Below, piece after piece: positions 54,576 through 58,826 of a stretch of 64,000 bases of DNA. The stretch comes from Thermoleophilia bacterium SCSIO 60948. Its GTDB lineage: Bacteria; Actinomycetota; Thermoleophilia; Solirubrobacterales; 70-9. How positions within the stretch are numbered: the first letter of the stretch is position 1; each line of letters opens with the position of its first letter. A program made the translations under genes and the position numbers. The notes under the pieces are model-generated. The model saw nothing but the letters and a program-made list of their open reading frames with translations, did no database searches and was not told the origin of the DNA. Where the stretch lies: NCBI GenBank assembly GCA_021496505.1, contig CP053031.1:1542001-1606000 (forward strand), written 5' to 3'.

Positions 54576-55241
54576 GTGAAGGGACGCGTGTTCGAGGAGT
54601 TGCGAGGTCACTACGGCGCCCTGCTCGCGGTGCTGCTGTGCTCGATCGTGTTCCAGCTCGGGGCGCCGGACTCGGAGTTCGCACGGGTCATCGTGATCGC
54701 GCTGCAGGGGTTCGCGCTCGTCCTCGCCTTCCTGGCCGCCGGCGTGCGGCGCGTGATCGTGATCCCGGTCGCCGCGCTGGCGATCCTGGCGGTCGGCGGG
54801 GCGGTTCTCGCCGTCTCGTCGACGGGCCTCGACGAGCTCCCGGCTCGCCTCGTGACGCTGATCCTCATCGCCACGGGACCCGTGGCGATCGCCCTCGGCC
54901 TCGTCCGGGGGATTCGCGCCAACGGGATCACGCTCCAGACGATGTTCGGGACGCTCTGCCTCTACCTGTTCATCGGCCTGCTCTTCTCCGGCACCTATGG
55001 CGCGATCGGTGCCGGCGAGGGCACGGCGTTCTTCGGCCGAGAGTCGCTCGACGTCCCGTCGAACTTCCTCTACTTCTCCTACGCGACGCTGACGACGGTC
55101 GGCTACGGCGACCTCGCCGCCGCGACCGACGTCGGGCGCTCGTTCGCGATCCTCGAGGCGCTGCTGGGCCAGATCTACATGGTCACCGTCGTCGCGCTGA
55201 TCGTCGGCAACCTGCACCGCCGGCGCGACCCCGCGCCTTAA
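54576..55241 (+). CDS. Potassium channel-like ion channel
   Basis: 221 residues, GTG start. Several membrane spans in the first 130 residues (VIVIALQGFALVLAFLAAGV, VIVIPVAALAILAVGGAVLA) precede a 2-TM pore module. The selectivity filter is YFSYATLTTVGYGDLAAATD, the K+ signature TVGYGD, and LEALLGQIYMVTVVALIVGN is the last span. There is no RCK domain or S4-type Arg array. Its stop TAA overlaps the convergent thioesterase stop on a shared TTAA. Confidence 0.9.
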   Translation: MKGRVFEELRGHYGALLAVLLCSIVFQLGAPDSEFARVIVIALQGFALVLAFLAAGVRRVIVIPVAALAILAVGGAVLAVSSTGLDELPARLVTLILIATGPVAIALGLVRGIRANGITLQTMFGTLCLYLFIGLLFSGTYGAIGAGEGTAFFGRESLDVPSNFLYFSYATLTTVGYGDLAAATDVGRSFAILEALLGQIYMVTVVALIVGNLHRRRDPAP

Positions 55242-55657
55242 CCCGGAGCGTCGCGAACCGCGATCGTCATCCGCACGACGGCCAGCAGCCGGCCGGCGCC
55301 ATCGGTGAAGTCGCAGTCCCAGATCCAGGTCGAGCGGCCACGGTGACGGGCGCGAGCGTCGCACGTGACCTCGCCGTCGCTCGCGGGTCGTATGAAGCTC
55401 GCCTGGTTGGACTGCCCCATCGCGATCCGCCCGTCGGCCGCCACGGCGACGGCCGTCCCGATCGAGCAGGCGCTCTCGGCGACCGCCGAGTAGACGCCGC
55501 CGTGGACTATCCCGAACGGCTGGCGGACGGCGTCGGTGACGTCGAAGCGGGCCACGACATGCCCGTCGGCCTCCTCGACCCCGCGCTCGATCGTGGCGCC
55601 GAAGTGCTCCATCACGCGGTCGGGACCGATGTCCTCGAGCTTCAGCGGCGGCGCCAT
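55238..55657 (-). CDS. PaaI-family hotdog thioesterase
   Basis: 139 residues from ATG 55657. The hotdog motif is RQPFGIVHGGVYSAVAESAC, with HGG and the Glu on the central helix, followed by MGQSNQASFIRPASDGEVTC and RSTWIWDCDFTDGAGRLLAV. PaaI-type enzymes hydrolyse aromatic or fatty acyl-CoA. TACGCT lies 7 bases before the start, indicating a leaderless mRNA. Substrate unknown. Confidence 0.9.
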   Translation of the reverse strand: MAPPLKLEDIGPDRVMEHFGATIERGVEEADGHVVARFDVTDAVRQPFGIVHGGVYSAVAESACSIGTAVAVAADGRIAMGQSNQASFIRPASDGEVTCDARARHRGRSTWIWDCDFTDGAGRLLAVVRMTIAVRDAPG

Positions 55658-55731: not shown

Positions 55732-55737
55732 TAGGCT
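55732..55737 (+). promoter_or_regulatory. -10 hexamer of membrane HTH gene
   Basis: TAGGCT, 10 bases before ATG 55748. A perfect small hairpin GGGCT-GAA-AGCCC (55719-55731) lies directly upstream and could be a binding site. Confidence 0.4.
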
Positions 55738-55747
55738 GACGGTCGCC

Positions 55748-56848
55748 ATGGCACTCGGAGCCGAAGCACAGGCCGTGATCCAGCTGCTGCTGGTACAGCG
55801 GCAGAGCTACGCCGACATCGCCGGCCTGCTCGGCGTGAGCGAGACCGAGGTCAGGACCCGTGCGCGCGCGGCGCTGACCGAGCTCGGCGATGCCGATCCC
55901 GATCGCGAAGCCGCTCTGACCGACTACCTGCTCGGACAGGGCGACGCGATCGACCGCGCCGACGCGATCCGTCATCTGCGCTCGAGCCCGGCCGATCGCG
56001 AGATGGCCGCGCGGATGATCGCCGAGCTGCGCGCGATCGCACCCGACGCCGACCTACCCCGGCTCCCCGGTGAGCCGCGCGGGGGCGGTCCCGGCCGTCT
56101 CGCCGGCCTGCGCGAGCGCTTGCCCTCGCTCCCGGCCCGACGCCCCGGAGGGCAGCCAGCGACCGTTCAGCCCGGTGCCCCGGAGGCGACCGAGCGCGAC
56201 CCGAAGCGAACCCGGATCTTCGCCGCGATCGCCGCCGGGGTGATCGTGCTGCTCGTCGTCGTCCTCGCGGTCACCGGGGTGTTCGGCGGCTCGGACGAGG
56301 GTTCGGGCTCGGCGACCGCCTCCTCGGAGTCGACGAGCACCGCCGACGGTTCCGATCCGACGTCCGCGACGGATCTCGGCGAGGGACAGGACGTTCAGGC
56401 CGTACCGCTGCGCGCCGAGGGCGGCGGCGACGCGAGCGGCGTGGCGACCGTCGGGATCACGACCGACAGCCAGGTTCCCTACCTCGACGTGGAGATCCAG
56501 GATCTCCAGGCGCCGAACCCCGACCAGGTCTACTTCATCTGGTTCGTCCAGGAGGACGGCCAGGGCTACCCGTTCGTCCCACTCGAGATCAACGCCGACA
56601 ACGCGAAGAGCTTCAGCGATCGCTTCGAGATTCCGACCGAGTACATCCCGGTGCTCGAGAGCGCGTCGCGTTCACCCGAGGGCGCCATCGAGGTCTGGCT
56701 CTCACCGAGTCGCGAGCTCGGCAAGAACATCCAGAGCGCCGTCCGCGAGGAAGGATTCGTCGAGATCCCCGGGGAGAAGGTCCTCAGCGGCAGCCTCGCT
56801 CCGCCCGAGGGTCAGGGCGGCGGCGCCGGCGCGGGCGGTCAGCGCTAG
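55748..56848 (+). CDS. Membrane-anchored protein with sigma-region-4-like HTH and RskA-like outer domain
   Basis: 366 residues. Residues about 5-47 (AVIQLLLVQRQSYADIAGLL, GVSETEVRTRARAALTEL) look like sigma-70 region 4, a DNA-binding HTH. Residues 48-155 are charged, then Pro/Gly-rich. One membrane span lies at 157-178 (FAAIAAGVIVLLVVVLAVTG). The outer part has a Ser/Thr-rich linker and a beta domain (about 210-350; DQVYFIWFVQEDGQGYPFVP) reminiscent of the RskA anti-sigma outer domain. It could be a one-component transmembrane regulator or an anti-sigma-like sensor. The stop shares CTAG with the convergent gene. Confidence 0.7.
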   Translation: MALGAEAQAVIQLLLVQRQSYADIAGLLGVSETEVRTRARAALTELGDADPDREAALTDYLLGQGDAIDRADAIRHLRSSPADREMAARMIAELRAIAPDADLPRLPGEPRGGGPGRLAGLRERLPSLPARRPGGQPATVQPGAPEATERDPKRTRIFAAIAAGVIVLLVVVLAVTGVFGGSDEGSGSATASSESTSTADGSDPTSATDLGEGQDVQAVPLRAEGGGDASGVATVGITTDSQVPYLDVEIQDLQAPNPDQVYFIWFVQEDGQGYPFVPLEINADNAKSFSDRFEIPTEYIPVLESASRSPEGAIEVWLSPSRELGKNIQSAVREEGFVEIPGEKVLSGSLAPPEGQGGGAGAGGQR

Positions 56849-58077: not shown

Positions 58078-58548
58078 TCAGCGCTCGAGGTAGCTCAGCT
58101 TGTATTTGCCGACCTGGATCTCGTCGCCGTCGGAGAGCAGGTGCGACTCGATCCGGCGCCGGTTGACGTAGGTCCCGTTGAGCGATCCGAGGTCGTCGAC
58201 GTAGTAGCCGTCCTGGCGCTGGACGATCAACGCGTGGTTTCGCGACACCGTCACGTCGTCGAGGAAGACGGCGGCCTCCGGCGCGCGCCCGATCGCCATC
58301 CGCTCGGCCTTGACCGGAAAGCTCTCCCCCGCGCGGCCACCGCCAGAGCGGATCACGAGCGCGGCGCCCGCGTCCTCGACTTCCTCCTCGATGTCGACCG
58401 GCTTGAACTCGCCGGTCTCGTCGATCCGGTAGGTCATCGTGGTCGGATCCTCGGTGCCCTCCGGGCGGCCGAGGAAGGCGCCGCATTTCTGGCAGTAGTT
58501 GGCGCCCTCGGGGTTGACGAAGCCGCACTCGGGACAGTGCAGTGCCAT
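58078..58548 (-). CDS. GarA-like FHA protein with N-terminal zinc ribbon
   Basis: 156 residues. Cys5, Cys8, Cys19 and Cys22 (HCPECGFVNPEGANYCQKCG) form a zinc ribbon absent from GarA. The segment EDPTTMTYRIDETGEF holds a Thr-Thr pair (36, 37) like the phosphorylation switch of GarA/OdhI. The FHA domain (about 75-150) shows AIGRAPEAAVFLDDVTVSRN, HALIVQRQDGYYVDDLGSLN and GTYVNRRRIESHLLSDGDEI. GarA restrains 2-oxoglutarate metabolism when unphosphorylated. It overlaps the RsiG-like gene by one base. Confidence 0.9.
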   Translation of the reverse strand: MALHCPECGFVNPEGANYCQKCGAFLGRPEGTEDPTTMTYRIDETGEFKPVDIEEEVEDAGAALVIRSGGGRAGESFPVKAERMAIGRAPEAAVFLDDVTVSRNHALIVQRQDGYYVDDLGSLNGTYVNRRRIESHLLSDGDEIQVGKYKLSYLER

Positions 58549-58826
58549 CAGCGGCCGGGATCCTCCGGCACCGGCGGGACCTTGCCGAGCAGGATCTCCG
58601 TGAGCTGATCGACGTCCGCCCCGGTGAGCGCCGACTGACCCTCCTCGCGACGCGTACGCAGGCGGTTGACGAGCTCGGCCCGGAGGATGTCGATCTTGCC
58701 GTGAAGCGTGCGGCGCCGGTAGGAGGTCTCGCGCTCCTCCTCGGTCAACTCCTCGATCAAGGCCTTGAGCTCGGCGTCCGACATCGAGCCGAGGTCGGGA
58801 ACGCTCTCGTCGTAGGCCATGCTCAT
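58548..58826 (-). CDS. RsiG-like c-di-GMP-responsive anti-sigma factor candidate
   Basis: 92 residues, ATG 58826. A long helix (about 16-62) carries E31-x3-S35-x2-R38-x3-H42-x3-D46, which matches the c-di-GMP motif E(x3)S(x2)R(x3)Q(x3)D of RsiG except for His in place of Gln. There is a single motif copy, as in the homodimeric Rubrobacter RsiG. Coiled-coil character and size fit. RsiG holds a WhiG-type sigma when c-di-GMP is bound; no WhiG is in the window, though a SigB/F-type sigma lies at 41432. Confidence 0.72.
   Translation of the reverse strand: MSMAYDESVPDLGSMSDAELKALIEELTEEERETSYRRRTLHGKIDILRAELVNRLRTRREEGQSALTGADVDQLTEILLGKVPPVPEDPGR

What the first reader, a model, noticed from the sequence alone, without database searches (positions are those of the whole stretch)
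55748..56848. Sigma-region-4-like HTH joined through a membrane span to an RskA-like outer domain
The protein combines a cytoplasmic DNA-binding HTH of the sigma type, one membrane helix and an outer beta domain resembling that of the anti-sigma RskA. A sigma factor gene is not adjacent. It may be a one-component transmembrane transcription regulator or an anti-sigma that evolved from a fused sigma domain.
Basis: partly seen in the sequence, partly recalled or inferred. Interest (0 to 1): 0.6.

Follow-up and report, generated by a model that had tools for sequence, protein, structure and literature searches.

The report
Sigma-4 piece fused to membrane anti-sigma
A bacterial membrane protein joins a small DNA-binding-type piece of a transcription (sigma) factor to the domain that normally holds that piece captive, so it looks like a two-protein stress sensor collapsed into one chain.

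Summary
The chain is sigma4 - ASD helices 1-3 - linker - membrane helix - RskA_C. It lacks sigma2 and also ASD helix 4, which normally grips sigma2, so it keeps just the sigma4 half of a sigma/anti-sigma complex, in cis. I found 79 distinct members, essentially confined to Solirubrobacterales, in a conserved neighbourhood. Best reading: an ECF sigma/RskA pair collapsed into a self-inhibited, membrane-tethered one-component regulator, probably freed by proteolysis. The architecture is well supported; masking, release, DNA binding and targets are inferred. Against classical DNA reading, two of three base-reading sigma4 residues are lost in most members. It is a new variant of known sigma/anti-sigma fusions (ECF48/52/53, IutY), which keep sigma2.

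The parts
55748..56848 (+). whole gene: sigma4-type HTH - ASD core - linker - membrane helix - RskA_C-type domain
55748..55888 (+). sigma-region-4-type HTH, residues 1-47
   Evidence: Sigma70_r4_2 29/30 and Sigma70_r4 28/30 members at E<=0.1; 27.6 bits; fold
55910..56038 (+). ASD core helices 1-3, residues 55-97 (RskA type, without zinc ligands)
   Evidence: hhalign 92.1%, 200 shuffles at most 13.0 vs 35.8; family HMM finds own-genome RskA at E 4e-4; three helices
55922..55939 (+). DYLLGQ motif in ASD helix 1 (residues 59-64), the sigma4-facing helix of known ASDs; L62 in 79 of 79
   Evidence: PMC7406223 passages
56039..56200 (+). Pro/Ala-rich linker (residues 98-151) where ASD helix 4 would be expected; no helix 4 found
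   Evidence: 0 of 75 linkers >=5 bits vs 24 of 25 RskA left one out; no helix, low pLDDT
56201..56272 (+). single membrane helix, residues 152-175, basic side inward
56387..56812 (+). outer RskA_C-type beta domain, residues 214-355
55732..55737 (+). TAGGCT, -10-like element 10 nt before the ATG
   Evidence: TA[GC]3T at -32..-8 in 62 of 79 members, 2.45 expected
55238..55657 (-). divergent hotdog thioesterase (4HBT); start inferred from the sequence; 90-nt shared intergenic stretch
   Evidence: divergent neighbour in 19 of 20 relatives' loci

Best explanation
The gene encodes a membrane-tethered one-component regulator that arose when an ECF sigma/RskA gene pair collapsed into one chain. Sigma2 and ASD helix 4 (the sigma2 clasp) are gone; sigma4 and ASD helices 1-3 (with the sigma4 clasp, helix 1) remain. 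At rest the ASD covers sigma4 in cis at the membrane. A signal on the outer RskA_C domain leads to cleavage (site-1, then site-2 protease) or a change of shape, the cytoplasmic piece is unmasked, and sigma4 acts on DNA or on the RNA polymerase flap. Shown: domain order, ASD homology, loss of sigma2 and of helix 4, conservation, neighbourhood. Inferred: ancestry by deletion, masking in cis, proteolysis, target.
For: ASD homology; sigma4 profile; helix 4 absent in 0/75 vs 24/25 test; ASD helix 1 is the most conserved ASD part (3.21 bits vs 1.92 and 2.19); L62 79/79 and hydrophobic residue 43 in 76/79, which correspond to the RskA L18 / SigK L177 contact (numbering in part recalled); sigmaL4 alone binds an ASD, which then covers DNA and polymerase surfaces (PMC2877774 passages); single-gene unit without adjacent sigma; S2P-type genes in the genome.
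Against: No experiment. Of three base-reading residues of sigma4 only the Arg/Lys at 36 is common (73/79); Ser/Thr at 37 in 13/79, Arg/Lys at 41 in 2/79. No operator-like motif upstream of the gene. Fold alone does not separate sigma4 from GerE/LuxR. Domain contacts inside the model could not be read. Nearest ASD and nearest sigma4 in the genome come from different loci, so a single parental operon is not shown. S2P genes are near universal and prove little.
Confidence: 0.5

Rival explanations
1. An ordinary orphan RskA-type anti-sigma that sequesters an ECF sigma encoded elsewhere; the N-terminal HTH is an accessory.
For: Real ASD core and RskA_C; many ECF sigmas in the genome; L090 and L097 have an ECF sigma 2.5-3.7 kb away.
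Against: Helix 4, the conserved sigma2 clasp, is missing; sigma4 sits next to its own binding helix in the same chain; no sigma in 18 of 20 neighbourhoods.
Confidence: 0.2
2. A ToxR-like regulator that binds DNA from the membrane without cleavage; the ASD core is only a structural spacer.
For: HTH, membrane helix and outer sensor in one chain.
Against: The ASD helix that faces sigma4 is its most conserved part, which a spacer would not need.
Confidence: 0.15
3. A RodZ-like envelope scaffold whose HTH binds protein, not DNA.
For: Same gross plan as RodZ (recalled); degenerate recognition face; house-keeping type promoter and near-fixed neighbourhood.
Against: Domains match sigma4, ASD and RskA_C, and no RodZ families were listed.
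Confidence: 0.13
4. Half of a split sigma factor that pairs with a free sigma2 protein, as SigO/RsoA of B. subtilis (recalled).
For: A sigma4 without sigma2 in the chain.
Against: All 30 sigma2 matches of the genome have a sigma4 match beside them (compared by hand).
Confidence: 0.02

Closest known systems
RskA (anti-SigK) family, class I ASD (SigK-RskA, PDB 4NQW)
   Same: ASD helices 1-3, one membrane helix, RskA_C outer domain
   Different: carries its own sigma4, lacks helix 4, no partner sigma gene beside it
ECF sigmas fused to a membrane anti-sigma: ECF48, ECF52 (SCO4117), ECF53, ECF36, IutY (ECF243)
   Same: sigma part and membrane anti-sigma part in one chain; proteolysis shown for IutY and expected for others (PMC8999054 passages)
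   Different: those keep a whole sigma with sigma2; here sigma2 and the sigma2 clasp are lost
sigmaL4/RslA complex (PDB 3HUG)
   Same: sigma4 held by an ASD without sigma2 in the crystal; sigmaL4 is among the nearest by sequence and fold (34% identity)
   Different: there a made complex of two proteins, with helix 4 and zinc
Transmembrane transcription regulators (TTRs; PMC10269533)
   Same: HTH, membrane helix and outer domain in one chain
   Different: here a sigma4 HTH followed by an ASD; the words sigma, anti-sigma and RskA do not occur in that paper's main text

Membership tests
ECF sigma factor | sigma2 domain | tested here: not met
   no Sigma70_r2 match in the protein nor at its place in the genome search
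ECF sigma factor | sigma4 domain | tested here: met
RskA-type class I anti-sigma factor | ASD three-helix core | tested here: met
   supported
RskA-type class I anti-sigma factor | ASD helix 4 (sigma2 clasp) | tested here: not met
   0 of 75 linkers vs 24 of 25 RskA; no helix at 98-151
RskA-type class I anti-sigma factor | RskA_C outer domain after one membrane helix | tested here: met
   17 of 30 members at E<=0.1, 17 family loci over the cut-off; the window's own copy stays below
RskA-type class I anti-sigma factor | cognate sigma gene next door | tested here: not met
   none in 18 of 20 neighbourhoods; 2 of 20 have one 2.5-3.7 kb off
RskA-type class I anti-sigma factor | binds and inhibits a sigma factor | not testable with these tools
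   needs binding assays
Fused ECF sigma/anti-sigma (ECF48/52/53, IutY) | complete sigma (sigma2 and sigma4) joined to a membrane anti-sigma | tested here: not met
   sigma4 and anti-sigma parts present, sigma2 absent
Fused ECF sigma/anti-sigma (ECF48/52/53, IutY) | activation by proteolysis | not testable with these tools
   S2P-type genes present, no cleavage data
Transmembrane one-component regulator | HTH, membrane helix and outer domain in one chain | tested here: met
Transmembrane one-component regulator | sequence-specific DNA binding | not testable with these tools
   residue pattern is mixed: Arg 36 and 38 kept, 37 and 41 not
RodZ | RodZ HTH and RodZ outer domain (names recalled) | tested here: not met
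   not among the Pfam matches shown for the protein or for 30 members (25 of 27 families shown)

The most novel reading that the evidence does not exclude
A sigma/anti-sigma pair reduced in one chain to its sigma4 half: a self-inhibited, membrane-anchored sigma4-ASD module that has left the sigma trade and works as a one-component switch, by DNA of new specificity or by docking sigma4 on the RNA polymerase flap. It would show a route by which sigma/anti-sigma signalling turns into one-component signalling, fixed across Solirubrobacterales.
Probability: 0.4. Interest if true: 0.68.

Novelty: new variant of a known kind. Interest (0 to 1): 0.5.

Why it matters
Sigma/anti-sigma pairs and one-component regulators are counted as separate modes of bacterial signalling. 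A conserved family that keeps only the sigma4 grip of an anti-sigma, with sigma4 itself attached, suggests how one mode can turn into the other and offers a compact system for testing ASD-sigma4 masking without sigma2. It also warns that 'sigma-70 region 4' and 'RskA' labels in this group need not mark a sigma factor or sigma sequestration.

Tried and rejected
Split sigma factor: all 30 sigma2 matches have a sigma4 match beside them. Hidden operon partner: in the relatives I could see, the gap between the gene and the SRPBCC gene holds mostly a convergent FAD-linked oxidase gene (14 regions scanned, the output was cut), with other genes in some, and no sigma or protease that I saw. Superoxide dismutase: the outer domain's best fold matches are Cu,Zn SODs (Z 10.9, rmsd 3.3, 114 aligned), but it has no His or Cys, so only the barrel is shared. 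Zinc anti-sigma: HxxxCxxC in 0 of 79 members, 21 of 29 RskA. Operator search: only -10-like elements and the start of the thioesterase gene were enriched upstream. No Foldseek match had E<=0.001. No anti-sigma (ASD) chain stood in the fold lists shown for the N-terminal model; absence there means little. Profile searches of genomes with A1 failed on the machine, so the spread rests on a single-protein search and. Covariation between sigma4 and ASD was not computed, as L62 does not vary.

Full report
The ORF at 55748-56848 is real and conserved. It is 366 aa from an ATG. A search with the protein in 299 genomes of the class gave matches in 93: its own genome, 24 of the same family, 57 of the same order, and 11 elsewhere in the class that are short and weak (my count from the table). 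A scan of named genomes gave 61 loci, most titled Solirubrobacterales or its genera (Conexibacter, Patulibacter, Svornostia); two titles, 'Chlamydiae bacterium' and 'Bifidobacterium breve', look misassigned. Pooling 30 members with these and removing repeats left 79 distinct members.

Domains. The HTH at residues 1-47 is of the sigma region 4 type: 29 of 30 members match Sigma70_r4_2 and 28 of 30 Sigma70_r4 at E<=0.1. The window copy passes the Sigma70_r4_2 cut-off in the genome search (27.6 bits) but not in the protein scan (24.4 bits). Residues 152-175 are one membrane helix (a strongly hydrophobic stretch in 74 of 75 members). The outer domain matches RskA_C at E<=0.1 in 17 of 30 members and over Pfam's cut-off in 17 family loci in the 61 genomes (my count); the window copy stays below. 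Its predicted fold is a Cu,Zn-SOD-like barrel without His or Cys.

Aligned with 29 RskA N-termini of the same order, the family's middle region gives an hhalign probability of 92.1% and score 35.8, while 200 column shuffles of the RskA alignment reach at most 13.0; the HTH region gives nothing. An HMM of the middle region run against frames around sigma and RskA genes of the window's genome puts one RskA-type protein (L046, next to a sigma gene) first at E 4e-4 and a second (L044) next at 0.013; the third (L045, 0.43) lies behind chance frames. Both AlphaFold models show three helices there. The zinc motif of many RskA proteins is absent (0 of 79 against 21 of 29).

What is missing matters as much. 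In known complexes ASD helix 1 binds sigma4 and helix 4 binds sigma2 (PMC7406223, passages read). The family has no sigma2. An HMM of the RskA helix-4 stretch scores 5 bits or more in 0 of 75 family linkers (four truncated members left out), in 3 of the shuffled linkers reported, and in 24 of 25 RskA proteins when each is left out of training (4 of the 29 RskA were not used because the stretch was not seen in them). So sigma2 and the sigma2 clasp are both absent, while sigma4 and the sigma4 clasp remain. The clasp helix is highly conserved: mean 3.21 bits over residues 55-64, against 1.92 and 2.19 for helices 2 and 3 and 1.70 for the linker. L62 is invariant in 79 of 79; residue 43 is Leu, Val, Ile or Phe in 76 of 79. 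By the SigK alignment residue 43 corresponds to SigK L177 if the crystal construct has a 17-residue tag (my inference), and L62 to RskA L18 by a recalled sequence; these two form the Leu-Leu contact described for ECF17-19. A crystal structure of sigmaL4 alone with RslA shows that an ASD can hold sigma4 without sigma2 and that DNA and polymerase surfaces are then covered (PMC2877774, passages).

Against a classical -35 reader: of the SigW base contacts K170, T171 and R175 (PMC6713349, passages; numbering checked on the SigW line), residue 36 is Arg or Lys in 73 of 79, residue 37 is Ser or Thr in 13 of 79, and residue 41 is Arg or Lys in 2 of 79; the backbone-contacting Arg at 38 is kept in 74 of 79. 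If the domain binds DNA, it does not use the usual ECF -35 code. Fold comparison alone cannot tell sigma4 from GerE/LuxR HTHs.

Surroundings. In 20 of the 29 relatives' loci, a thioesterase gene lies divergently next to the gene in 19, an SRPBCC gene lies on the far side in 19 and ftsR in 20 (one partial). With convergent neighbours, the target is a single-gene unit. A TA[GC]3T element 8-32 nt before the start is found in 62 of 79 members, 2.45 expected, with no conserved -35, which fits a housekeeping, near-leaderless promoter (inference). ECF sigma queries find no sigma in 18 of 20 neighbourhoods; L090 and L097 have one 2.5-3.7 kb off (positive control found in 8 of 8 loci).

Mechanism. I hold that an ECF sigma/RskA pair, whose genes lie in the order sigma then anti-sigma, was joined and cut down to sigma4-ASD(1-3)-membrane-RskA_C, and that the resting protein masks sigma4 in cis. 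The genome has site-2-protease-type genes (4 matches in 3 places, best 3.6e-51), as all 14 control genomes do, and RskA itself is a substrate of such a protease in M. tuberculosis (PMC7509140, passages), so release by cleavage is the likeliest trigger, though unproven. Whether the freed sigma4 touches DNA or the polymerase flap is open.

Novelty. Sigma factors fused to their membrane anti-sigma are known (ECF48, 52, 53, 36, IutY; PMC8999054, passages), but they are sigma factors with sigma2. My literature searches that were answered listed nothing that I recognised as a sigma2-less fusion; I read passages of seven papers and no whole text, and most subscription papers are not held. I rate it a new variant of a known kind.

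Noticed in passing
window 58548-58826 (-): 92-aa RsiG-like protein (Pfam PF22802, E 1.7e-19) with the E(X)3S(X)2R(X)3H(X)3D c-di-GMP motif; found near ftsR in 12 of 20 relatives' loci. Single-motif RsiG with His is already described for Thermoleophilia (PMC8325347 passages).
   Followed up: partly
own genome C1:57383-58639 (L047, L187, L188): A second protein of similar plan: weak sigma4-type HTH (Sigma70_r4_2 E 0.022), very long acidic/Pro linker, membrane helix, RskA_C 36.6 bits, over the cut-off. Matches in 17 of 81 order genomes, mostly to the outer part only.
   Followed up: partly
own genome about C1:153.3-155.1 kb (L046, L179): A sigma-like protein next to an RskA/zf-HC2 protein: Sigma70_r4 is over the cut-off but no Sigma70_r2 match is seen. 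Its RskA ASD is the genome's closest to the family's middle domain. It could be a step on the way to sigma2 loss.
   Followed up: partly
relatives L079-L098 against window 56845: Most relatives have a FAD-linked (GlcD-like) oxidase gene between the target and the SRPBCC gene; the window's genome lacks it there and the two genes overlap by 4 nt.
   Followed up: partly
L090, L097: Two relatives have an ECF sigma gene 2.5-3.7 kb from the target, best matched by the window genome's sigma next to an RskA gene (L045).
   Followed up: no
L124, L144: Public records titled Chlamydiae bacterium and Bifidobacterium breve carry clear members of this family, which suggests mislabelled metagenome bins.
   Followed up: no
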